From NCBI GenBank assembly GCA_000495415.1, contig AWGX01000531.1, forward strand, positions 1 to 27,704: 27,704 nucleotides of DNA, in the 5' to 3' direction. Positions 6,409 through 20,744 of this stretch are shown here, in pieces. The stretch's first letter is position 1; each line of letters starts with the position of its first letter. Both the position numbers and the translations under genes were made by a program. The DNA is from Smithella sp. ME-1 (lineage in GTDB: Bacteria; Desulfobacterota; Syntrophia; Syntrophales; Smithellaceae). Under the pieces are notes generated by a model. The model searched no databases and was not told where the DNA came from. It saw only the letters and a list, made by a program, of their open reading frames with translations.

Positions 6409-6516
6409 AAAATCATTGGAAAGTATTAAATAAATTTATGATTCTGTTCAATGCATTGTCTGTTTTGATTTTTTTTAATATCGAATTTAGATTTTGTGTT
6501 TCTAAAGGAGTTTTTC

Positions 6517-6888
6517 TTGAAATTATATGAAGTTAAAGAAATACTGGACGCTGATGTAATTGTCGGCACAGAAAAATTAGATATGGAAGTAAAAACTGCT
6601 TTCGGAGCTGATTTGATGAGTGATGTTCTTGCTTTTGCCAAACCAGGAAGCCTCTTGCTGACAGGTCTGACCAATGACCAAATCATCAAAACAGCCGCTA
6701 CCCGAAATATTGCCGCTATCATCCTGGTTAGAGGAAAACAACCTTCATCCGAAGCTATAAATGCAGCCAAAGAGCTTCAAATTCCCATTTTAGCCACTAA
6801 ATACATATTATTTGAAACGGCCGGAATCCTTTACAGTAAAGGCATAGTTGGTTGCATTAAAAAAGTGGGAAATGATAGCCTTTCTTAA
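6517..6888 (+). CDS. DRTGG-domain protein, copy 1
   Basis: Small (123 residues) soluble protein consisting essentially of one DRTGG-type domain. The conserved part includes FGADLMSDVLAFAKPGSLLL and IAAIILVRGK. The domain family is known beside AAA/P-loop and CBS domains and as stand-alone proteins near hydrogenase genes; its ligand is not established. The start is taken as TTG at 6517, because AAAGGAG (6504-6510) sits correctly before it and it gives MKLYEVKEIL, matching the start of copy 2. A GTG 21 nt upstream (6496) is open but poorly placed. About 74% identical by eye to the next gene. Probably co-transcribed from the promoter at 6379. Confidence 0.85.
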   Translation: MKLYEVKEILDADVIVGTEKLDMEVKTAFGADLMSDVLAFAKPGSLLLTGLTNDQIIKTAATRNIAAIILVRGKQPSSEAINAAKELQIPILATKYILFETAGILYSKGIVGCIKKVGNDSLS

Positions 6889-6992: not shown

Positions 6993-7367
6993 TTGAAGCT
7001 TAAAGACGTAAAAGAAATACTTAATGCCGAAATAATAGTCGGTGAAGAAAAGTTAGACATGGAAGTTAGAACGGCTTTTGGAGCCGATTTGATGAGTGAC
7101 GTTCTTGCTTTTGCAAAAGCCGGCAGTCTTTTGCTGACAGGTCTGACTAACAGCCAGGTAATTAGAATAGCCCATGTCATGGATATTGCCGCTATAATTC
7201 TAGTTAGAGGGAAAAAACCACCCATTGAAACAATAAATCTGGCTAAAGAATTTAAAATCCCCGTTTTAACAACCAAATACATTTTATTTGAAACTGCGGG
7301 CCGTCTTTATACTAAAGGCATAGTTGGTTGTCTGGAACAAGTTGAAGATCACAGTGCACACAACTGA
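6993..7367 (+). CDS. DRTGG-domain protein, copy 2
   Basis: A 124-residue single-domain DRTGG protein, tandem paralogue of the preceding gene (about 74% identity by eye across about 116 residues, with longest identity over the LDMEV...AFGADLMSDVLAFAK block and ILFETAG). The start is TTG at 6993 with GAGG a few nt upstream. No transmembrane segment or signal peptide, so cytosolic. The 3' end overlaps the start region of the following ATPase gene by about 26 nt, implying translational coupling. A ligand-binding or phospho-responsive regulatory role beside the ATPase is inference. Confidence 0.85.
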   Translation: MKLKDVKEILNAEIIVGEEKLDMEVRTAFGADLMSDVLAFAKAGSLLLTGLTNSQVIRIAHVMDIAAIILVRGKKPPIETINLAKEFKIPVLTTKYILFETAGRLYTKGIVGCLEQVEDHSAHN

Positions 7368-7797
7368 AACTGAAAATTATTTATATAAGAATAGTTTTGA
7401 TGTTGAAGGTGGCAATTTTAATAATGCAGGGGCTGTTTCCACGCAAGTAAAATCTATTCTAAAGAATATTGATTTACCCATCAACGTAATTAGAAAAGCA
7501 GCCATAGCCTGCTATGAATCAGAAATTAATATTGTATCCTATGCCAGGCAAGGAGTTATTAATCTGACAGTCACTCCCAAAACTATCGAATTTGATATAA
7601 CTGATGAAGGGCCCGGAATACCAGACATTGAATTGGCAATGGAGCAAGGTTATTCCACCGCAGACCGGCAGATAAGAGAAATGGGCTTTGGTGCGGGGAT
7701 GGGACTTTATAATATTAAATGTTCTTCCGACATATTCAACCTCACGTCGGAAGTAGACAAGGGAACTTTTCTGAAAATAATTATCAATATCCCTTAA
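7342..7797 (+). CDS. RsbW/SpoIIAB-like ATP-binding protein (HATPase_c)
   Basis: A roughly 150-residue GHKL-fold ATPase like the anti-sigma-factor serine kinases RsbW, SpoIIAB and RsbT. Visible motifs are the N-box region around ACYESEINIVSYA, the G1 box DEGPGI, and the G2 glycine-rich GFGAGMGL. It is a lone kinase-like domain with no sensor or dimerisation domain, as in partner-switching proteins. The start is uncertain: TTG at 7342 gives MKITVHTTE and is preferred, while TTG at 7324 and GTG at 7354 are in frame. It overlaps the DRTGG copy 2 gene. A sigma factor or anti-anti-sigma partner is not in the window, so the usual partner-switching role is only a family analogy. Confidence 0.85.
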   Translation: MKITVHTTETENYLYKNSFDVEGGNFNNAGAVSTQVKSILKNIDLPINVIRKAAIACYESEINIVSYARQGVINLTVTPKTIEFDITDEGPGIPDIELAMEQGYSTADRQIREMGFGAGMGLYNIKCSSDIFNLTSEVDKGTFLKIIINIP

Positions 7798-7813: not shown

Positions 7814-8155
7814 ATGAATATCCAAACTATCATTACAGAATTAAATTTAAAGGTTAGGTCCGTATCAGACAAACTTAATAATAAAGTCACAGGAGGTTAT
7901 ACGGGAGATCTCTTAAGCGATGTTATTGCAAATTCTCACGAAGGAGATATCTGGATAACAAGGCAGGTACACCAGAATATTGTTGCCGTAGCCAGCCTGA
8001 AGGAACACGCAGGCATTATTTTGACCAATTCCTGCGAACCGACGCAAGAAACCATAGAAAAAGCAAATCAGGAAAAAATACCTATAATGGTTTCCGATTC
8101 GCCCGCGTTTGAGTTAACTGGCAAAATTTATAATCTATTAGGGGAAAAAGATTAA
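7814..8155 (+). CDS. DRTGG-like domain protein, divergent copy 3
   Basis: A 113-residue protein from ATG 7814, 16 nt after the ATPase. It aligns with copies 1 and 2 in outline: GYTGDLLSDVIANSHEGDIW corresponds to FGADLMSDVLAFAKPGSLLL, HAGIILTNSCEPTQETIEKA to IAAIILVRGKQPSSEAINAA, and SPAFELTGKIY to YILFETAGILY. Identity is low, so it may bind a different ligand or pair with the others as a heteromer. Last gene of this transcription unit: a terminator hairpin follows 17 nt later. Confidence 0.78.
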   Translation: MNIQTIITELNLKVRSVSDKLNNKVTGGYTGDLLSDVIANSHEGDIWITRQVHQNIVAVASLKEHAGIILTNSCEPTQETIEKANQEKIPIMVSDSPAFELTGKIYNLLGEKD

Positions 8156-10927: not shown

Positions 10928-13900
10928 ATGAAGGTTTTTCGTTCACATTTATTAATTTGCGGAGGCACTGGTTGTCAAGCTTCCGGTAGTTTGGCCGTTA
11001 AAGAAGCTTTAATGGAAGAAATTGAAAAAAGGAAATTAACTGAAGAAATAAAGGTTGTCGAGACAGGCTGCAACGGTTTCTGCGCCTTGGGTCCCATAAT
11101 GGTAGCATACCCTGAAGGTGTTATTTATATTAGTCTAAAGCCGGCAGATATTCCTGAACTGGTCGAGGAACACCTGATCAAAGGTAGAATTGTAAAGAGG
11201 CTTTTATATAAGGAACCGGGCACGGAAAAAATTATTCCCACCATGCAGGAAATTCCCTTCTTCTCTCTTCAGGAATTAAGAGTTTTAAAAAACCGCGGAC
11301 TTATCGACCCCGAAAAAATTGAAGAATATATCGCTCGCGACGGATACGCCGGCATGGCTAAAGCGCTAACGGAAATGACGCCTGAACAAATCGTCAAAGA
11401 AATGCTTGATTCCGGTCTGCGTGGCCGCGGCGGAGCTGGATTTCCTACCGGTTTAAAATGGAAATTTGCCGCTCAGTCCAAAGGCGATGTAAAATATGTT
11501 TTATGTAACGCTGATGAAGGAGACCCGGGCGCCTTTATGGATCGCAGTGTTCTGGAAGCTGATCCGCACGCCGTTCTGGAAGGAATGGTGATTGCAGCCA
11601 AGGCTATCGGTTCTTCTCAAGGTTATATTTACTGCCGTGCCGAATATCCACTGGCTATTCATCGTTTAAATATCGCCATTGCCCAGGCCAAAGAAGCGGG
11701 TCTGCTTGGTAAAAATATTTTAGGCACCGGCTTTGACTTTGATTTGGAAATTTATCAGGGCGCCGGCGCATTCGTCTGCGGCGAGGAAACAGCCCTGATG
11801 ACTTCTATTGAAGGAAAAAGAGGCATGCCCCGTCCCAGACCGCCCTTCCCTGCTGTGGCGGGACTCTGGCAGAAACCCAGTATTCTGAATAACGTGGAAA
11901 CTCTGGCCAATGTCGGACAAATCATGCTGAAAGGCGCAGCCTGGTACGCATCCATTGGAACGGAAAAGAGCAAAGGAACAAAAGTTTTCGCTCTTACCGG
12001 TGATGTTAACAACGTAGGACTGGTCGAAGTTCCGATGGGAACAAAACTAGGCACTATTGTTTATGACATCGGCGGCGGCATTCCTGAAGGCAAAAAATTC
12101 AAGGCGGCGCAGCTCGGCGGTCCTTCCGGCGGATGTATTCCCATTCAACATTTGAACGCTCCGGTCGATTATGAAAAAGTTGCCGAACTCGGTGCCATCA
12201 TGGGTTCCGGCGGTTTGATTGTTATGAATGAAGATAAGTGCGCCGTCGATATGGCCCGTTTCTTCATGGATTTCTGTCAGGATGAATCATGCGGTAAATG
12301 TACACCCTGTCGTGAGGGAACAAAACGCATGCTGGATATTTTAACTAATATCACCCAGGGCAAAGGAAAAGAAGGAGACATTGAACTTCTAGAAGAAATG
12401 GCGGGAGTAATCAAAAACGCGGCTCTCTGCGGACTGGGGCAAACCGCTCCCAATCCCGTTTTGAGCACCATCCGTTATTTTCGCAAGGAGTACGAGGAAC
12501 ACATACGCGATCATCGCTGCCGTGCCGCTGTTTGTTCGGCAATGTTCAAATCACCATGTCAGCATACATGTCCGATTGAAATGGATATTCCTTCATATAT
12601 CGCACTGGTCAGAGCTGAAAGATTTGAAGACGCCTACAAAATACTTTTGCAGACCAATCCTTTTCCCTCAGTTTGCGGAAGAGTATGTGATCACAAATGT
12701 CAGAGCAAATGCCGCCGTGGCAACATGGATGAGGCAATAGCCATCAAATTCCTGAAACGTTTTATTACAGATAATGCATCACGTCCCAAGATCGAAGCAG
12801 TATCCGTCACCCGTAAAGAAAAGATAGCCGTTGTCGGCGCCGGTCCCGCAGGATTGACTGCCGCGCGTGATCTTGCTCTTCGCGGCTATAAAGTGACCGT
12901 TTTTGAAGATTTGTCCAAAGCCGGCGGTATGCTTTATTGGGGCATTCCGTCCTATCGTCTACCGCGTAATATCCTCGATAACGAAATTGACGATATCCGC
13001 AAATTAGGCGTGGAAATCAAGCTGAAAACGCGCGTCGGCAAAGACATTACTTTCGCCAAACTGCAAAAAGATTTCAATTATATTTATATGGCCACCGGCG
13101 CCCACAAGAGTCAGAAAATGGGCGTGGAAGGTGAAAACTTGAAAAATGTTTTTGGAGGCGTGGAATTCCTGCGCGACTTCAATGCCAATGAAGGCAAATG
13201 GTTGAAAGGCGAAAAAACCCTTGGCAAGAAAGTGGCTGTCATCGGTGGCGGTAATTCTGCAATTGATGCCGCAAGAGTCGCCACCCGCTTAGGTGCCAGC
13301 GTTACCATTCTCTATCGCCGCCTGAAACAGGATATGCCTGCAGCTCATGAAGAAATAAAAGCTGCCGAAGAAGAAGGAATCAAGATTGAACTTCTGGTCG
13401 CTCCATTGAAAATTGAAGGAACAAAAGGAAAGGTTAACTCCATTACCTGCCAGAGAATGACCCTGGGCGATTTTGACAACAGCGGGCGTAAGAAACCGGT
13501 TCCAGTAGCAGGCTCCGAATTCACCCTAAATGTAGACGCTGTAATCGCTGCTATCGGTCAGGTTCCCGATATGAGCTTTGTCGACAAGAAATCCGGTATT
13601 GAAATCAACAAGTGGGATTGTTACAACGTCGGCAACGTCTACAAATCACGCACCAGTAATCCCAAATATTTTGCCGGCGGAGATGCTGTCACCGGTCCGG
13701 ACACCGTTATTGCCGCTATCGGCGCCGGCCATCAGGCCGCTGATGACATCGACTCTGCTATACGCAAAGCCAATAATGAGCCAGCTTATGAAAAACCTGA
13801 ATCGGAAAAAATTGATGTGCCGCTCATCATCGACGAGGATACTGTGGAAACTCCCCAGATAGCCATGCCGGAAATGTCCGCGTCAAAACGCAAGAAGATT

Positions 13901-13984
13901 TTCGAGGAAGTGGAACTGGGATTCAAGAAAGCAGACGCCTTCAAGGAAGCCTGCCGCTGCCTTAGATGCGACGCCTCTGTTTAA
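10928..13984 (+). CDS. NuoF/HydB-GltD/NfnB fusion flavoprotein
   Basis: A 1018-residue fusion. Residues 1-95 are a thioredoxin-like [2Fe-2S] domain (C11, C16, C48, C52). About 130-530 is a NuoF/HydB core with the FMN/NADH site (GRGGAGFPTG at 164-173, EGDPGAF), an SLBB domain and the [4Fe-4S] motif SCGKCTPC (about 453-460). At RCRAAVC, where HydB normally continues into ferredoxin domains, the chain instead enters a GltD/NfnB module. This has an Fe-S domain with CQHTC and VCGRVCDHKCQSKC, an FAD-binding VGAGPAG (about 635), and a second Rossmann motif GGGNSAIDAA with a downstream YRR typical of NADPH sites. It ends in CRCLRC. Expected role: transfer of electrons among NADH, NADPH and ferredoxin, resembling Sporomusa-type Nfn (Stn) transhydrogenases. 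No hydrogenase catalytic subunit follows. Confidence 0.92.
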   Translation: MKVFRSHLLICGGTGCQASGSLAVKEALMEEIEKRKLTEEIKVVETGCNGFCALGPIMVAYPEGVIYISLKPADIPELVEEHLIKGRIVKRLLYKEPGTEKIIPTMQEIPFFSLQELRVLKNRGLIDPEKIEEYIARDGYAGMAKALTEMTPEQIVKEMLDSGLRGRGGAGFPTGLKWKFAAQSKGDVKYVLCNADEGDPGAFMDRSVLEADPHAVLEGMVIAAKAIGSSQGYIYCRAEYPLAIHRLNIAIAQAKEAGLLGKNILGTGFDFDLEIYQGAGAFVCGEETALMTSIEGKRGMPRPRPPFPAVAGLWQKPSILNNVETLANVGQIMLKGAAWYASIGTEKSKGTKVFALTGDVNNVGLVEVPMGTKLGTIVYDIGGGIPEGKKFKAAQLGGPSGGCIPIQHLNAPVDYEKVAELGAIMGSGGLIVMNEDKCAVDMARFFMDFCQDESCGKCTPCREGTKRMLDILTNITQGKGKEGDIELLEEMAGVIKNAALCGLGQTAPNPVLSTIRYFRKEYEEHIRDHRCRAAVCSAMFKSPCQHTCPIEMDIPSYIALVRAERFEDAYKILLQTNPFPSVCGRVCDHKCQSKCRRGNMDEAIAIKFLKRFITDNASRPKIEAVSVTRKEKIAVVGAGPAGLTAARDLALRGYKVTVFEDLSKAGGMLYWGIPSYRLPRNILDNEIDDIRKLGVEIKLKTRVGKDITFAKLQKDFNYIYMATGAHKSQKMGVEGENLKNVFGGVEFLRDFNANEGKWLKGEKTLGKKVAVIGGGNSAIDAARVATRLGASVTILYRRLKQDMPAAHEEIKAAEEEGIKIELLVAPLKIEGTKGKVNSITCQRMTLGDFDNSGRKKPVPVAGSEFTLNVDAVIAAIGQVPDMSFVDKKSGIEINKWDCYNVGNVYKSRTSNPKYFAGGDAVTGPDTVIAAIGAGHQAADDIDSAIRKANNEPAYEKPESEKIDVPLIIDEDTVETPQIAMPEMSASKRKKIFEEVELGFKKADAFKEACRCLRCDASV

Positions 13985-14411: not shown

Positions 14412-15116
14412 ATGGCAGAAGAATTAGTTCCCGTTGAAAAAATAAAAGCTCCGGAACAAATCGCTGAAATGCTGCTTAAATACATTTTACAAGGCGGCGT
14501 AAGTCCCGGCGATAAATTGCCCCCGGAAAGAACATTGGCAACACAACTGAATGTCACAAGGGCAACACTGCGAGAAGCGCTCAAAAAACTTGAACAGTTA
14601 AAACTAATTATTATCCATCAGGGAAAAGGGATTATCGTTCAGGATTTTCATAGTGCATCTCTTGATCTGATATTTTCATTACTGGTAATAAACGGTGAAA
14701 TCGACTTTAAAATTCTGGAAAATATTTTTGAAGCCAGAGAACTTTTTGCTACCGATGTGGCAAGACTGGCTGCAAAAAGAGCAGAAAATAAAGATATCGA
14801 ACAGATGAAAATACTGATGGAAGAGCTGGTCAATACAACTGATCCGATAAAAATACACCTTTTGGATTTCGAATTTTTCCGACAGCTAGCATTGGCCAGT
14901 AAAAACATTGTTTATATGCTTCTGATGAGTACCATAAAAACAATTTATGACAAACATCTGGATCTGTTCCTGCCGTCGTCCACAAATCTTAATACATCTT
15001 TACAACAGGAAATATTAGAAGCTGTCATAAATAGAGATGAGGAAAAAGCAGCACAAAGCGCCAGAAAATTTCTACAAAGAGGAATGTCGTTACTTAAATC
15101 TCTAAATTCCACTTAA
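14412..15116 (+). CDS. FadR-subfamily GntR transcriptional regulator
   Basis: A 234-residue repressor or activator with an N-terminal GntR winged helix (about 12-80, including GDKLPPERTLATQLNVTRAT) and a C-terminal all-helical FCD-type effector domain (about 95-225). FCD domains usually bind a metal through one Asp and three His. Here Asp152 is present, but the three His positions read F156, Q198 and F220, so the metal site is absent, as in acyl-CoA-binding FadR. Start ATG 14412 after GAGGTGAGG. It lies 88 nt upstream of, and in line with, the glycyl radical enzyme gene, which is its likely target besides itself. The ligand is unknown; an acyl-CoA or organic acid is an inference. Confidence 0.9.
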   Translation: MAEELVPVEKIKAPEQIAEMLLKYILQGGVSPGDKLPPERTLATQLNVTRATLREALKKLEQLKLIIIHQGKGIIVQDFHSASLDLIFSLLVINGEIDFKILENIFEARELFATDVARLAAKRAENKDIEQMKILMEELVNTTDPIKIHLLDFEFFRQLALASKNIVYMLLMSTIKTIYDKHLDLFLPSSTNLNTSLQQEILEAVINRDEEKAAQSARKFLQRGMSLLKSLNST

Positions 15117-15204: not shown

Positions 15205-18200
15205 ATGCAAACAGCCAAGAATCTCACAAATTATGAGACCGAGCCCCAGGAAAAACTGAAAATACTGAAAATACAGCGAACATGTGTTCACGACGGGCCC
15301 GGCATCCGCACGACCATTTTCTTTCAAGGATGCGGATTGAGATGCCTGTGGTGCCAGAATCCGGAAGCATTATCCTATCGGCCTGAATTCGCCGATGATG
15401 GTGATTATTCGATTTCCGGCATCGTCGAACTTGTTTCCAGAGACAAGGATTATTATTACAAGACAAACGGCGGCGTTACTCTCTCCGGCGGTGACCCTCT
15501 GCTGCAGAAACCGGACAGCATGATACCTCTGCTAGACTCGCTGCATAGGGAAAATATTCATATCGCCGTGGAAACCTCTTTGCATGTGCCTTGGGCTAAT
15601 GTTGAGAAATTAGCGCCTTATATAGATTTATTTCTGGCCGATCTGAAAGTTGTCGGAGATGAGAACCTTCACAAAAAGTTTACCCAGCATGACAGCAAAT
15701 TGATTCAGGAGAATATAAAAAAGCTTCTTGCGCTGAAAGCGAATGTCAAATTCCGTATGGTAATCGTGCCGGGTTATAATGACGGCAAAGAACAGATCAA
15801 AGCAACGGCGGATTTTCTTAAATCTGTTGGTCACGATTCCATAGAATTGCTCAAATACCACAATATGTATGAGGAGAAAGCCAGACGTCTCAGCCTGGTT
15901 ACCGAATCATTGAATATCACAAACGACCAGAGTCTGACGGCTTTGAAAAGTGCCGTCGAATCATTTAAAGTTCATGGAACCAAAACTTCCTGCTACGACC
16001 TGGATGCCAGAAGACACAAGGCAGTCTTTACAAAACGCGTCCATGACATTCAGGACGCCATTAGAAAAAGCGGCAGAGCCCTGTGTTTTGAAGTTTCAAG
16101 GCTAAAGACGGATTACTACAAGAAAAACGGTTTTAAGAAACCTAATACCATTCACAGAGCGGAACGTCTGGACTATGTATTAAAGAATAAGAGTGTTATC
16201 ATCTACCCTCAAGAACTTCTCGTCGGTAATTTCACGGCCAAGAGATGTGCCGGCCAAATATGGGAAGAACACTACGGCGCTCTCTTCGCTTCGATTCTCC
16301 ATCAAATCCATCGCCAAAAACCTGTTCCGTTCCAATGCACATGGAAGGAAAGGATTAACTTCTTTTATAGAACTCTTCCATTCTGGCTGCGTCACTGCCT
16401 CCTATTGAAGACCGCTAATTCGATTCCCAAGTTCATGATGACCATTGCCCGTGCCTCGGAAAATGCATACGGATTTAATAACAACATGGCCGCCATTGCG
16501 CATTTCACAATGAACTACGACCGCATTCTGGCCCTGGGAACAACGGGAATCATCAAAGAGATCGAGGCCGCACGCAAAGGGAAACCGGAAAGCAGTCAGG
16601 CCTTCTACGATGGCGCGATTATCAGTTTAAAAGCATTGGAGGCATTTGCAGAGCGATACACAGACAAGCTCTCCAGCCTGGCCAAGGAAGAAAAGGACCC
16701 GCAACGCCGCAAGGAGCTGGAGGAGATGGCCACTATCTGCACTTATGTGCCTAAGAACCCTGCCCGTACTTACCATGAAGCGCTCCAGAGCATGCTGTTC
16801 TTCCAGATCGCCGTCTGCACCGAGTCATACGAAAACGCCATCTCTCATGGCCGCCTCGATCAGGTAGTTTATCCATATTACAAAAGGGATAAAGAAGCCG
16901 GAATAATCGATTACGATAAGGCGAAAGAACTGCTGGCCCTCTTCATCCTCAAGATGGACGAAGTCATCCTTGTCAACGACGGCGACACCTACCTCCGTAT
17001 CGGCAGGCTCTTCGAGACCATGTCTGTAGATCAGGCCGTGACAGCAGGCGGACTTGGCAGAGACGGCAAAGACGCTACCAATCCCTGCACCTACATGCTG
17101 CTCGATATCTGCGAACTCCAGCCTTATGCCTGTAACATGTCAGCACGGATTCACAAGGACAGTCCCCAGGAATATCTGGACAGACTTGCTGAGGTCTATA
17201 TCAACGGAGCGCCGATGCCTGCCCTGTACAATGACGAGATTTACCTTAAAACCCTGGCAAAGCATTACCCTGACATCCCTGTGGAGGATGCGAGGAATTA
17301 CGCAAATATCGGTTGCGTCGAGCCGAACGTTAACGATGACCATTTCGGCAACACTGACTGCGCAAACGTTAACGTTGCCATGCCCTTTCTGCAGGCATTG
17401 AAAGGCGAGGAAAGCGATTTGTGGAACGTCGGCCTCGCCGATCAGATAGAAAAGATGACTACTAAGTTCTTCGAGTATAACTGTCGGAGAGATAATAAGC
17501 CCTCCAAATACATCCTGGCAAAGTATTTGAAGGCCCGCAATAGGTTCAAGAAGAAGAGAACCCCTCCACCTAAACCGCCAGCTAATATGGATGACTTGCT
17601 GACACGTTTTCAGTCGCGCTTGAATTTCATCACCAACTCGATACTTGCCGACCACCAGGATATCGAAAAGGTCATCGCCGAACACTTCACGACGCCCCTT
17701 TCCTCGACACTCTTTCCGAATTGCATCGACAGCGGAAAGGATCTGTGCCAGGGCGGTGCCAAGGTGAACAGCAGCGGCATTCAGGCGGTAGGAATCACCG
17801 ATGTCGCTGATTCGTTATTCGCCATTGATGAGGTGGTATTCAAAAAGAAATTATATTCCACCACTGATGTCATCAATGCTATCGATAACAACTTCGAAGG
17901 TGAACGCAATCAGGAGATCAGAAAGGCACTGCTCGCAGTTCCGAAATTCGGTCATGACGGTTCCAGAGAGGCTTCCGCCTGGGTTAACAAAACCCTGGAT
18001 ATATGGTGCAAGGCGCTGAAGTCGGTGAAGAACTGCCCCCGTAACGGCATTTACACCGCCGGCTATTACGCCCTGAATGTCAACGATCTTTACGGGAAGA
18101 AGACACCCGCCCTGCCTTCTGGGAGACTGGCTGGCGTATCGCTTGCCAACAGCGTCACCCCTCATTACGGAATGGAGACGAACGATCTGTTATCGTCGCT

Positions 18201-18513
18201 CAACTCCGTAGCCGAGGCCGATTTTGTAAACTATGCACCCAACGGCACCACGGTCACGTTCACTGTCGATTCGGCCCTGTTCCAGGGTAAGGATGGCATC
18301 AAAAACTTGGCCGGCATCTTCAGCACTTTCTTCAAGAAAGGCGGCATGCAGTTCCAACCGAATGTAATAGACCGCCAAATATTGCTGGATGCGTATGATC
18401 ATCCGGAAAAATATCCGCATCTTTTGGTTCGCGTTGCGGGTTATTGTTCATACTTTAACGATCTGTCCGATGACTTGAAAAAAATTATTATCAACAGAAC
18501 TTGTTATTCTTAA
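15205..18513 (+). CDS. Fused glycyl radical enzyme activase and glycyl radical enzyme
   Basis: A single 1102-residue chain holding two proteins that are normally separate. Residues 1-268 are a radical SAM glycyl-radical activase: C43-X3-C47-X2-C50 (CGLRCLWC) and SGGDP (94-98), with WCQNPE as in larger activases but without their ferredoxin-like insert. Residues about 270-1102 are a full-length PFL-like glycyl radical enzyme. The thiyl cysteine is C704 in GCVEP, with Glu706 two residues on. The radical glycine is G1079 in RVAGYCSYF, 23 residues before the C-terminus. The single Cys with Cys-Val-Glu excludes true pyruvate formate-lyase (adjacent Cys pair) and resembles the eliminases and decarboxylases (glycerol or choline type, hydroxyphenylacetate). 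The substrate is unknown. Start ATG 15205 after AAAGGA. Bases 16400-18350 are visibly richer in GC than the two ends. Confidence 0.9.
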   Translation: MQTAKNLTNYETEPQEKLKILKIQRTCVHDGPGIRTTIFFQGCGLRCLWCQNPEALSYRPEFADDGDYSISGIVELVSRDKDYYYKTNGGVTLSGGDPLLQKPDSMIPLLDSLHRENIHIAVETSLHVPWANVEKLAPYIDLFLADLKVVGDENLHKKFTQHDSKLIQENIKKLLALKANVKFRMVIVPGYNDGKEQIKATADFLKSVGHDSIELLKYHNMYEEKARRLSLVTESLNITNDQSLTALKSAVESFKVHGTKTSCYDLDARRHKAVFTKRVHDIQDAIRKSGRALCFEVSRLKTDYYKKNGFKKPNTIHRAERLDYVLKNKSVIIYPQELLVGNFTAKRCAGQIWEEHYGALFASILHQIHRQKPVPFQCTWKERINFFYRTLPFWLRHCLLLKTANSIPKFMMTIARASENAYGFNNNMAAIAHFTMNYDRILALGTTGIIKEIEAARKGKPESSQAFYDGAIISLKALEAFAERYTDKLSSLAKEEKDPQRRKELEEMATICTYVPKNPARTYHEALQSMLFFQIAVCTESYENAISHGRLDQVVYPYYKRDKEAGIIDYDKAKELLALFILKMDEVILVNDGDTYLRIGRLFETMSVDQAVTAGGLGRDGKDATNPCTYMLLDICELQPYACNMSARIHKDSPQEYLDRLAEVYINGAPMPALYNDEIYLKTLAKHYPDIPVEDARNYANIGCVEPNVNDDHFGNTDCANVNVAMPFLQALKGEESDLWNVGLADQIEKMTTKFFEYNCRRDNKPSKYILAKYLKARNRFKKKRTPPPKPPANMDDLLTRFQSRLNFITNSILADHQDIEKVIAEHFTTPLSSTLFPNCIDSGKDLCQGGAKVNSSGIQAVGITDVADSLFAIDEVVFKKKLYSTTDVINAIDNNFEGERNQEIRKALLAVPKFGHDGSREASAWVNKTLDIWCKALKSVKNCPRNGIYTAGYYALNVNDLYGKKTPALPSGRLAGVSLANSVTPHYGMETNDLLSSLNSVAEADFVNYAPNGTTVTFTVDSALFQGKDGIKNLAGIFSTFFKKGGMQFQPNVIDRQILLDAYDHPEKYPHLLVRVAGYCSYFNDLSDDLKKIIINRTCYS

Positions 18514-18573: not shown

Positions 18574-19239
18574 ATGAAAAAATCGTTATTACTTTCCATC
18601 ATTCTAATTTTTTTTGCCGCCTTATCCTATGGAGCAGAACCACAGAAAGTGAATTTTAACATCGATAAAGTGAAGCTGGAGTCAGGCAACCTTCAGGTCT
18701 TTGAGGAAAATTATGCAGTAGAGGGAAAAGGACAGAAAAAGCGTGCTGTCGGAGTCATTCTGATTAATGCTCCGCCTGCAAAAGTTTGGGATGTCCTCGA
18801 AAATTGGGACGTTATGGGAGAATTTGTTCCGGGTCTATCTTATTATAAAACAGTTCATGTGATAAAACCCATCGGAAAAGGTGATATTGGAGAATCTCTT
18901 ATTGAAGGAAAGCTAAGTTTTCCACCTATCAGATATACCCTCAATGTTACATTTGATAAAGCCAACTTAAGGCAGGATTGGCGTATGGTCACAGAAAAAG
19001 AAATCGCATCTTACAATGCAAAACAAGAAGTTTTGAAAAGTAATAGCTCAATGATCAAGAGTATAGAAGGATATGAATATCTTGAACCATATAACAACGG
19101 TTCGCAAACAGTTTATACATACGCACCTATTATTGAAACATTCGGTGCCGTGCCAGATTTCATCGATAGGGCATTAACAAAAAATACGCTTTCCGGATAT
19201 GTTAAATCCGTCAAGAAGCGTGTTGAATCTGGCAAGTAA
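18574..19239 (+). CDS. Exported SRPBCC (START/polyketide-cyclase fold) protein
   Basis: A 221-residue protein with a clear Sec signal peptide (KK, then a hydrophobic core to about 20, probable cleavage near SYGA-EP), so periplasmic in a Gram-negative cell. The mature part resembles the SRPBCC/Bet v1 ligand-binding fold: the INAPPAKVWDVLENWDVMGE segment is the usual start of that domain, and a long C-terminal helix follows. No catalytic motif is visible, and lipid or aromatic ligand binding is a family inference. It begins 60 nt after the glycyl radical gene with AAAGGAGGA before its ATG and has the same orientation, so it is probably co-transcribed and may share its physiological context. Confidence 0.8.
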   Translation: MKKSLLLSIILIFFAALSYGAEPQKVNFNIDKVKLESGNLQVFEENYAVEGKGQKKRAVGVILINAPPAKVWDVLENWDVMGEFVPGLSYYKTVHVIKPIGKGDIGESLIEGKLSFPPIRYTLNVTFDKANLRQDWRMVTEKEIASYNAKQEVLKSNSSMIKSIEGYEYLEPYNNGSQTVYTYAPIIETFGAVPDFIDRALTKNTLSGYVKSVKKRVESGK

Positions 19240-19405
19240 TAAATGTCGCCGCTATGGGCGAGAAAAAAGATTATTCCTTTAAAAACAAAGAATATTGACA
19301 AAATCATATAAACAAAGATATGGGGTAAGCGAGTAAAGTTATTATTAACTAAAAGGTAGAATCTTTCTGCTCTCAAAGAAAGTTAAAGTTTTTTATAATA
19401 TCAAA

Positions 19406-19436
19406 GGTTTGATTCTTCTGGAATCAAACCTTTTTT
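19406..19436 (+). terminator. Rho-independent terminator of the glycyl radical unit
   Basis: Perfect arms GGTTTGATTC (19406-19415) and GAATCAAACC (19421-19430), extended by AAA/TTT, with a 5-nt loop and a six-T run (19431-19436). It lies 166 nt beyond the SRPBCC stop. Bases 19240-19402 hold no gene that I can support. Confidence 0.92.
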
Positions 19437-19445
19437 AATGAGCCT

Positions 19446-19477
19446 TAAGTTTCAGAAACGCAGTGTGCTGAAACTTA
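19446..19477 (+). repeat. 10-bp hairpin in the hydE leader region
   Basis: TAAGTTTCAG (19446-19455) and CTGAAACTTA (19468-19477) are perfect inverted repeats with a 12-nt loop and no T run. It lies in the 458-nt space before hydE, just past the preceding terminator. Sequence to about 19540 contains further short pairings (AGCGA near 19498 with TCGCT near 19525), so a structured leader is possible. I match it to no riboswitch family. No convincing promoter was found for hydE. Confidence 0.45.
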
Positions 19478-19697
19478 TAGAGAGAATTATCCCCATAGCG
19501 ATGCGGAGTGGGATTATGAGACTCGCTGAAAACCAATGCTTTATTTACTTTTAAAGAATACTTAATGGATTATGCCAGTTCAGCTACACGGAAGGCCGGC
19601 AATAAATTAATTCAAAAAATGCTCAAAGAAACTTTCAAAACAAGACGCAAAAAAATTGTTTGCGACAGGCTGCAGAAAATTGAGGGAGGCTTAAGAG

Positions 19698-20744
19698 ATG
19701 TCTACATCTGACCGGATAGAGAAACTGCTGCTCAAGGCGGAAATTGGCAAATCCCTAAGCAGGGCTGAAATTATCGATCTTTTAAAAATGCCTGGCGATT
19801 GTGTTCAGGATCTATTCAACACTGCCGACCATATCCGTCAACGAGAAGTTGGCGATGAAATTTTTCTGCGCGGGATCATTGAATTTTCCAATCACTGTGA
19901 GCGCAATTGCCTTTACTGCGGTTTACGCAAAAGTAACAGCAAGCTCAACCGTTATCGCATGACCGATGATGAGATTATAAATACTGCACAAGAAATTAAA
20001 AAATCACGCGTACCTACGTTAGTTCTTCAATCAGGAGAAGATTCTTTTTATTCAACCGACAGGATTTGCCGTCTGATCGAACAGACAAGAAATGAAACAG
20101 GTTTGATTATCACATTATCCATTGGCGAAAGAAGCGCTGCGGATTTTCAGTTATTTCTGCAAGCAGGTGCGGACCGTTACCTGCTCAAGCAAGAAACTGT
20201 ATCACCGGGACTTTACAAATATTTGCGGCCGGGTTGTCAACTGGATAAACGAATACAATGTCTGCGCTCACTCAAACTCATGGGATTTGAAACGGGGATA
20301 GGAAACATGGTGGGACTACCGGGACAGACATTGGAAATTCTGGCAGATGATCTGCTCTTTATGAAGCAACTTAATGCCGACATGCTGGGAATAGGACCAT
20401 TTATCGCTCATCCTGATACGCCATTTGCCGGCATTGAAAACGATGATATTGAACTCACTTTGCGTGTTTTGGCTATTGCCCGCATCCTCACACGCAACAC
20501 CAATATTCCGGCAACAACTGCTTTGGCCACGCTTCATCCGCAGGGACGGATTTTGGCTTTGCAGGCCGGCGCCAATGTTGTGATGCCGGATTTCACACCG
20601 GAAAATTACAAAATTCACTACGAAATTTATCCCGGCAGAACAGACGTCGGTTCGGCAGCAGAAATCATCAGCAATCTGGAAAAAGATTTTCAATCCATCG
20701 ATAGAACACGTTCATATTCACCAGGTAATCGTCCCGGCAAATAA
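19698..20744 (+). CDS. hydE: [FeFe]-hydrogenase H-cluster maturase HydE (radical SAM)
   Basis: A 348-residue BioB/ThiH-like radical SAM enzyme. HydE acts with HydG and HydF to build the diiron subcluster of [FeFe] hydrogenase. The SAM cluster motif is C67-X3-C71-X2-C74 (CERNCLYC), embedded in GIIEFSNHCERN...GLRKSN, a pattern characteristic of HydE; the GNMVGLPGQT and PGRTDVGS stretches also fit the family. Start ATG 19698 after GAGGGAGG. No hydA, hydF or hydG is in the window, so at least these partners must lie elsewhere. It stands alone, convergent with the next gene. A methylornithine synthase (PylB) is a related alternative, but the sequence reads better as HydE. Confidence 0.9.
   Translation: MSTSDRIEKLLLKAEIGKSLSRAEIIDLLKMPGDCVQDLFNTADHIRQREVGDEIFLRGIIEFSNHCERNCLYCGLRKSNSKLNRYRMTDDEIINTAQEIKKSRVPTLVLQSGEDSFYSTDRICRLIEQTRNETGLIITLSIGERSAADFQLFLQAGADRYLLKQETVSPGLYKYLRPGCQLDKRIQCLRSLKLMGFETGIGNMVGLPGQTLEILADDLLFMKQLNADMLGIGPFIAHPDTPFAGIENDDIELTLRVLAIARILTRNTNIPATTALATLHPQGRILALQAGANVVMPDFTPENYKIHYEIYPGRTDVGSAAEIISNLEKDFQSIDRTRSYSPGNRPGK

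What the first reader, a model, noticed from the sequence alone, without database searches (positions are those of the whole stretch)
15205..18513. Glycyl radical enzyme fused in one chain to its own activase
The sequence shows one uninterrupted frame with a complete radical SAM activase (C43/C47/C50, SGGDP) and a complete glycyl radical enzyme (C704, G1079). In well-studied systems (PFL, BSS, GD, CutC, HPAD) these are separate proteins, and the activase must open the enzyme to reach the buried glycine. A fusion implies activation in cis or between subunits at fixed 1:1 stoichiometry. I know of no characterised example.
Basis: partly seen in the sequence, partly recalled or inferred. Interest (0 to 1): 0.8.

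Follow-up and report, generated by a model that had tools for sequence, protein, structure and literature searches.

The report
Radical enzyme fused to its activator
This is one protein that joins an oxygen-sensitive radical enzyme to the activator that normally switches it on as a separate protein; the same fusion turns up across many uncultured bacteria and Asgard archaea, and I found no study of it.

Summary
ORF 15205-18513 (+, 1102 aa) is one open frame. Residues 16-263 form a complete radical SAM activase (C43/C47/C50; fold of PFL-AE) and 268-1102 a complete glycyl radical enzyme (GRE; C704-V-E706, G1079).

It is no assembly accident: 230 of 234 distinct proteins listed by two searches carry the Radical_SAM, PFL-like and Gly_radical domains. 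Named sources include Smithella, Myxococcales, Spirochaetae, Clostridia and Asgard archaea. Sampled fused activases and fused GREs each form one clade, so one fusion event is the simplest history. The activase lacks the ferredoxin-like insert of related activases. The junction keeps its length (18 residues in 228 of 230) while its sequence drifts. The active site differs from glycerol dehydratase at family-invariant positions.

Most likely it is a self-activating GRE, probably a dehydratase or other eliminase, of unknown substrate; activation within a chain or a dimer is inferred, not shown. In 10 of 22 loci, as in the window, a FadR-like regulator lies upstream. Ten full-text searches of an incomplete library found no natural fusion described. 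New variant of a known kind.

The parts
15205..18513 (+). gene for the activase-GRE fusion protein, 1102 aa
   Evidence: 230 of 234 distinct listed database homologues carry Radical_SAM + PFL-like + Gly_radical
15205..15990 (+). residues 1-262, radical SAM activase domain (PFL-AE fold at 16-263)
15331..15354 (+). CX3CX2C motif, C43/C47/C50, SAM-binding [4Fe-4S] site
   Evidence: sequence; C43 229/230, C47 and C50 230/230
15484..15498 (+). SGGDP motif, residues 94-98
   Evidence: sequence; S94-G95-G96 230/230
15991..16026 (+). residues 263-274, junction between the two enzymes; constant length, drifting sequence
   Evidence: span 258-275 is 18 residues in 228 of 230 and 17 in 2; mean pairwise identity over 259-274 is 0.40 against 0.60 (activase) and 0.66 (GRE)
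16027..18510 (+). residues 275-1102, glycyl radical enzyme domain
17314..17322 (+). catalytic C704-V705-E706
   Evidence: C704 and E706 230/230
17401..17574 (+). residues 733-790, poorly conserved region containing an insertion absent from the nearest unfused GREs
   Evidence: tblastn gap at about 733-784 in unfused relatives; mean identity 0.40 among fused members
18430..18444 (+). RVAGY glycyl radical loop, G1079 at 18439-18441
   Evidence: sequence; G1079 229/230
14412..15116 (+). FadR/GntR-type regulator immediately upstream, probable regulator of the fusion gene
   Evidence: GntR + FCD/FadR_C domains; same-strand upstream neighbour in the window and in 10 of 22 loci examined, 77-92% identical
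18574..19239 (+). START/polyketide-cyclase-like protein with signal-like N-terminus (by eye) downstream; neighbour only in the closest Smithella-type loci
   Evidence: similar neighbour in L001, L002, L027; Polyketide_cyc2 E 0.0011, below the Pfam cut-off

Best explanation
A self-activating glycyl radical enzyme. The N-terminal activase domain reductively cleaves S-adenosylmethionine and takes a hydrogen atom from G1079 of its own chain or of the partner chain in the GRE dimer. The C-terminal glycyl radical domain must swing out of the barrel to reach the activase, then return, so that the radical can pass to C704 and act on substrate with E706 nearby. Shown: both enzymes are complete by sequence and predicted fold, and the join is real, conserved and of constant length; its simplest history is one fusion event. 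Inferred: activation by the tethered domain, and dehydratase- or eliminase-type chemistry (C-x-E motif, nearest folds are diol dehydratases). Unknown: the substrate. A solitary gene carrying enzyme plus activator is a one-gene package, which may explain its patchy spread over Bacteria and Asgard archaea (speculative).
For: Complete activase and GRE folds, repeated for an archaeal homologue. Catalytic residues invariant in 230 sequences bar single alignment gaps. Sampled fused activases fall in one clade (100/100) and sampled fused GREs in one clade (100/100). Constant-length, sequence-variable junction. No in-frame ATG between residues 221 and 411 in the window. pTM 0.89 twice, where an unplaced activase domain would give about 0.71-0.78 by a rough calculation. 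The best activase-GRE covarying pair is residue 221 with residue 1077, two before G1079. The activase half is over the cut-off of the GRE-activating-protein model TIGR02494; the best GRE model is the PFL2/glycerol dehydratase subfamily TIGR01774, below its cut-off (475.8 of 678.2 bits). Unfused relatives with the order activase then GRE are a plausible precursor: activase found directly upstream in 5 of 17 loci, overlapping the GRE gene by 20-23 nt in the four measured.
Against: No biochemistry. Activase-GRE pairs are depleted among the strongest covarying pairs (9 of the top 500, about 178 expected), and the 221-1077 pair looks clade-linked (M-V 180, L-I 26, M-I 15, L-V 4, others 5 of 230). 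Both models align to GRE crystal structures through the C-terminus, so they look closed and do not display the activation complex. The activase domain lacks the ferredoxin-like insert of related activases. The activase tree does not resolve the activases of the unfused operons as sister to the fused ones. The substrate is unknown. A standalone activase (P0262) lies inside the fused activase clade, so tethering may not be essential.
Confidence: 0.7

Rival explanations
1. The fusion is real, but the activase mainly acts between the two chains of the dimer or between separate dimers; the tether serves co-expression and 1:1 dosage, not cis activation.
For: GREs are generally dimers (recalled). A variable linker sequence and weak covariation between the halves are what loose tethering might give. 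A standalone activase nests inside the fused clade.
Against: Junction length is constant in 228 of 230 sequences, and the domain placement implied by pTM is fairly definite in two models.
Confidence: 0.3
2. The two domains are separated after translation, or the GRE is also made alone from an internal start, so the enzyme works like ordinary separate GRE and activase.
For: In-frame TTG, GTG or ATG codons lie within the 45 residues before the GRE start motif in 15 of the 17 sequences examined. P0262 is a standalone activase of the same clade.
Against: In the window the in-frame ATG codons on either side of the GRE start are at residues 221 and 411, and 2 of the 17 sequences (L002, L027) have no ATG/GTG/TTG in those 45 residues. 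The constant junction length is not expected of a cleavage linker.
Confidence: 0.08
3. Assembly or gene-calling artefact.
For: The window is possibly a metagenome contig; no own genome is held and reads are not available.
Against: 230 of 234 distinct listed homologues carry the three core domains; full-length or nearly full-length fusions on single contigs in 15 of 155 genomes of the order of G001.
Confidence: 0.01
4. It is a fused member of a known substrate class (glycerol or 1,2-propanediol dehydratase, or pyruvate formate-lyase).
For: Annotation names such as formate C-acetyltransferase in source databases; best structural neighbours are 1,2-propanediol dehydratases.
Against: The glycerol dehydratase His-Ser pair (H281/S282, numbering recalled) is replaced by N544-A545 and Y339 by D609, invariant in 230 of 230. 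PFL's Cys-Cys is replaced by G-C. Of the 25 NCBIfam models shown, none of the GRE equivalogs reaches its cut-off.
Confidence: 0.1

Closest known systems
B12-independent glycerol / 1,2-propanediol dehydratases (1r8w, 5i2g, 9rco)
   Different: H281/S282 become N544/A545, Y339 becomes D609; extra residues near 596-603 and 733-784; fused activase; no microcompartment or alcohol-pathway genes noticed next to it (neighbours read by eye)
Pyruvate formate-lyase activating enzyme (3cb8, 3c8f)
   Same: Complete fold over residues 16-263, CX3CX2C, no ferredoxin-like insert (for PFL-AE recalled)
   Different: Fused to its presumed target; about 25% identity; the general GRE-activating-protein model TIGR02494 is over its cut-off, the PFL-specific TIGR02493 is not
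Unfused GRE operons of Syntrophales relatives (L039, L041, L042, L043, L051)
   Same: Gene order activase then GRE, overlapping by 20-23 nt in the four measured; GRE group next to the fused clade in the midpoint-rooted tree
   Different: Separate genes; activase with a cysteine-rich ferredoxin-like insert (15-18 Cys in all, four examined); GREs 32-35% identical over the whole domain
Archaeoglobus fulgidus PFL2/PflD (2f3o)
   Same: GRE fold, similar YE-x-AIS-x-GR-x-DQ stretch
   Different: Unfused (776-residue chain); about 30% identity

Membership tests
Glycyl radical enzyme superfamily (PFL/glycerol dehydratase type) | PFL-like barrel domain plus C-terminal Gly_radical domain | tested here: met
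   PF02901 440.4 bits (cut-off 24.3), PF01228 82.3 bits (cut-off 22.2); structure aligned to GREs over 268-1102
Glycyl radical enzyme superfamily (PFL/glycerol dehydratase type) | Active-site Cys and radical Gly in RVxGY | tested here: met
   C704 230/230, G1079 229/230
Glycyl radical enzyme superfamily (PFL/glycerol dehydratase type) | Glycyl radical formed and used | not testable with these tools
   needs EPR
GRE-activating radical SAM enzymes | CX3CX2C, GGE-type motif, PFL-AE fold | tested here: met
GRE-activating enzymes with ferredoxin-like domain | Cys-rich 4Fe-4S insert after the CX3CX2C motif | tested here: not met
   C50 to R79 spans only 27-31 residues, with no further Cys in 185 of 230, one in 38, two in 7
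Glycerol / 1,2-propanediol dehydratase | His-Ser pair and Tyr that hold the diol (GDH H281, S282, Y339; recalled) | tested here: not met
   N544, A545, D609 at the aligned places, 230 of 230
Pyruvate formate-lyase proper | Adjacent Cys-Cys (C418-C419, numbering recalled) in the active-site loop | tested here: not met
   G703-C704 in the fusion, C-C in E. coli PflB in the same alignment; TIGR01255 129.6 bits against cut-off 994.2
Choline TMA-lyase (TIGR04394), HypD (NF043068), sulfopropanediol dehydratase (NF048009, NF048011), indoleacetate decarboxylase (NF033718), HPA decarboxylase (NF033715) | Score over the curated equivalog cut-off | tested here: not met
   286/1050, 329.6/1100, 351.8/1000 and 344.7/1000, 216/1100, 200.7/1150 bits

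The most novel reading that the evidence does not exclude
A new functional class of radical enzyme that carries its own activator permanently docked. The activase would not be a one-time starter but a standing re-arming device: after radical loss or quenching the same chain re-installs its glycyl radical from fresh SAM, so that the protein behaves as a self-repairing, SAM-fuelled radical enzyme with an uncharacterised reaction, spread as a single gene over Bacteria and Asgard archaea.
Probability: 0.25. Interest if true: 0.85.

Novelty: new variant of a known kind. Interest (0 to 1): 0.62.

Why it matters
[quoted passage not shown] PMC12358834, passages). A natural fusion holds both partners at 1:1 in one chain. 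That makes the activation complex a target for direct structure determination, and cis against trans activation testable with point mutants. The family also represents an unexplored reaction in syntrophic bacteria and Asgard archaea; several members are annotated as formate C-acetyltransferase although the active site lacks the PFL Cys-Cys.

Tried and rejected
Assembly artefact: rejected, because 230 of 234 distinct listed homologues carry the three core domains. Second start near the junction: no in-frame ATG between residues 221 and 411 in the window, though TTG codons exist. Covariation as proof of contact: not usable; activase-GRE pairs are depleted among the top pairs. Distance from cluster to G1079: not obtainable, since no coordinates were laid in the box. 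Function from neighbours: among 22 loci a GntR/FadR-like regulator recurs in 10 (three loci, L010, L013 and L067, show little or nothing upstream), TetR-type regulators in some others; no pathway gene was shared widely. I had thought the other ~1000-aa GREs in the same genomes might be fusions too. They are not: in the five examined (L016, L018-L021) the GRE match begins at about residue 200-240 and no activase match lies in the same chain; L016, L017 and L019 have a separate activase gene. Literature on natural GRE-activase fusions: ten searches and passages of eight papers gave none; most subscription journals are not held, so absence from print is not established.

Samples used: the activase tree took the window plus 22 fused proteins, 17 of the 120 listed hits of the activase-only search, 7 activases next to GREs and 3 E. 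coli activases; L041's activase, found later, is not in it. The GRE tree took the window plus 22 fused, 15 of the 17 unfused loci (L048 and L053 left out), five ~1000-aa GREs, two others and three E. coli GREs; both trees are midpoint-rooted and some joins of long branches are flagged as unsure. One search used 229 of 234 database proteins (five outside 1050-1160 aa dropped) plus the window. The structure alignments used 115 other sequences and 89 others. The genome searches by protein score only 2-4 candidates per genome, so counts are lower bounds. My first gene calling missed the activase of L041, hidden by a longer ORF on the other strand; corrected.

Full report

It is a family. Two protein searches, seeded with the window and with a Clostridia homologue, reported 704 and 771 proteins at E <= 0.001 and listed 120 each. 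Of the 234 distinct listed proteins, 230 have Radical_SAM, PFL-like and Gly_radical domains; the other four lack one of the ends. The unlisted hits were not seen. Source names include Smithella, Deltaproteobacteria, Desulfobacterales, Myxococcales, candidate division CSSED10-310, Spirochaetae, Christensenellales, Oscillospiraceae, Promethearchaeota, Lokiarchaeota and Sigynarchaeum. Genome samples: full-length or nearly full-length fusions on one contig in 15 of 155 genomes of the order of G001 (the genome of L001, Smithella sp. isolate SDB_sulfate1), with pieces on two contigs in two more; 5 of 395 genomes of the phylum of G003; 1 of 391 genomes of the class of G005. So it is widespread but patchy; these are lower bounds.

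One origin. In maximum-likelihood trees the sampled fused activase halves form one clade (100/100; 24 rows, one of them the standalone P0262) and the sampled fused GRE halves form one clade on a long stem (100/100; 23 rows, stem 1.69). P0262 (264 aa, on a 2.39-Mb contig) falls inside the fused activase clade (83/85), which suggests a later split; its GRE was not seen. The unfused GREs matched in the same order are 28-43% identical in matched stretches; the 17 loci fetched are 32-37% over the domain. In 5 of those 17 loci an activase gene stands directly upstream on the same strand (L039, L041, L042, L043, L051). In the four measured it overlaps the GRE gene by 20-23 nt, counted from the ATG nearest the activase's end (23 in L039, 20 in L042, L043 and L051; L039 has a GTG nearer still, and L043 an ATG further upstream). 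Two overlapping genes in the order activase then GRE are a natural starting point for a fusion. This is inference, since the activase tree does not resolve those activases as sister to the fused ones.

Special features. The unfused activases of four of those operons carry a cysteine-rich insert after the CX3CX2C motif (15-18 Cys in all). In the fused ones C50 to R79 spans only 27-31 residues, with no further cysteine in 185 of 230. So the fused activase is minimal, like PFL-AE. The junction (residues 258-275) is 18 residues long in 228 of 230 sequences and 17 in 2. Yet the mean pairwise identity of residues 259-274 is 0.40, against 0.60 for the activase and 0.66 for the GRE. Constant length with drifting sequence suggests that the spacing matters. 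The window has no in-frame ATG between residues 221 and 411, so a separately translated GRE is unlikely there, though TTG codons at 236 and 247 are not excluded.

Active site. Aligned to Clostridium butyricum glycerol dehydratase (GDH residue numbers recalled), the family keeps the equivalents of H164 (H433), C433 (C704), E435 (E706) and D447 (D718). It replaces the H281-S282 pair by N544-A545 and Y339 by D609. N544, A545, D609, C704, E706 and D718 are 230 of 230 and H433 is 229 of 230, with one gap. Four extra residues near 596-603 (VNDGDxxL...LFET), GYYALN at 953-958 and an insertion near 733-784 also set it apart from the unfused relatives. Of the 25 NCBIfam models shown (31 matched), only the activating-protein family TIGR02494 reaches its cut-off; no GRE model does. 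The C-x-E motif and the neighbours in fold point to dehydratase- or eliminase-type chemistry; the substrate is unknown.

Does the tethered activase act on its own chain? This is not shown. For: a rough calculation says that pTM would be about 0.71-0.78 if the activase were unplaced, so 0.89 implies a placement error of some 1.5-7.5 A (an estimate under simple assumptions, not a measured value). The best covarying activase-GRE pair, 221-1077, joins an activase loop to the residue two before G1079. Against: that pair ranks only about 260th overall, activase-GRE pairs are strongly depleted among the top covarying pairs (9 of 500, about 178 expected), and the 221-1077 pattern looks clade-linked. 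Both models align to GRE crystal structures through the C-terminus, so they look closed and show at best a resting arrangement.

Surroundings. The gene often stands alone. A FadR/GntR-type regulator lies immediately upstream on the same strand in the window and in 10 of 22 loci examined, 77-92% identical to the window's. L007 has a TetR-type regulator upstream on the opposite strand (L024 copy tested), and L008 a similar one. In L012 it neighbours genes that look like fatty-acid beta-oxidation genes (by eye), and in Clostridia (L022) a corrinoid protein, a RACo-type activator and a URO-D methyltransferase. No such gene set was shared among many of the loci compared.

Comparison with the literature. 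PMC10239695 and PMC12358834 (passages seen) describe GRE activation by a separate activating enzyme and the need for the glycyl radical domain to leave the barrel. Ten full-text searches found no paper on a natural GRE-activase fusion. The Guaymas Basin survey PMC6258724 (passages) mentions GREs that group with no characterised enzyme; the word 'fused' does not occur in its main text. The library lacks most subscription journals, so an unseen report is possible.

Verdict. New variant of a known kind, interest 0.62.

Noticed in passing
L016 3744-6740, L018 5634-8606, L019 7578-10637, L020 7290-10283, L021 4787-7780: A second unusual GRE family of about 1000 aa in genomes that also hold the fusion: about 200-240 extra N-terminal residues, weakly SCP2 (sterol carrier)-like (E about 0.03, below cut-off, in 2 of 4 tested), with a separate activase gene in L016, L017 and L019 and SDR-like genes nearby by eye.
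   Followed up: partly
L022 1885-8507: In a Clostridia genome the fusion gene is followed on the same strand by a B12-binding corrinoid protein, a RACo-type reductive activator and a URO-D family protein, a possible clue to a methylated or methoxylated substrate in that lineage.
   Followed up: partly
P0262 (264 aa, database protein): A standalone activase on a 2.39-Mb contig that falls inside the fused activase clade and ends at the domain boundary: possibly a natural re-splitting of the fusion. Its GRE partner was not seen.
   Followed up: partly
window 10928-13984: A 1018-aa protein that joins a NuoF-like NADH-binding half to a glutamate-synthase-small-subunit-like half, itself a fusion; similar genes by sequence start and length are in L001 and L069.
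   Followed up: no
window 19239-19698 versus L001 14544-15938: L001 has a 464-aa gene, grouped by BLAST with HydE (HydG by eye, not tested), between the START-like gene and HydE, where the window has only about 460 bases.
   Followed up: no
window 6496-6888, 6993-7367, 7814-8155: Three neighbouring ORFs of 113-130 aa with similar sequences (by eye), with an ATPase-like anti-sigma-type ORF (by eye) at 7324-7797 among them.
   Followed up: no
whole family: The activase half diverges faster than the GRE half (0.60 against 0.66 mean identity over the family; 78% against 93% between window and L001).
   Followed up: no
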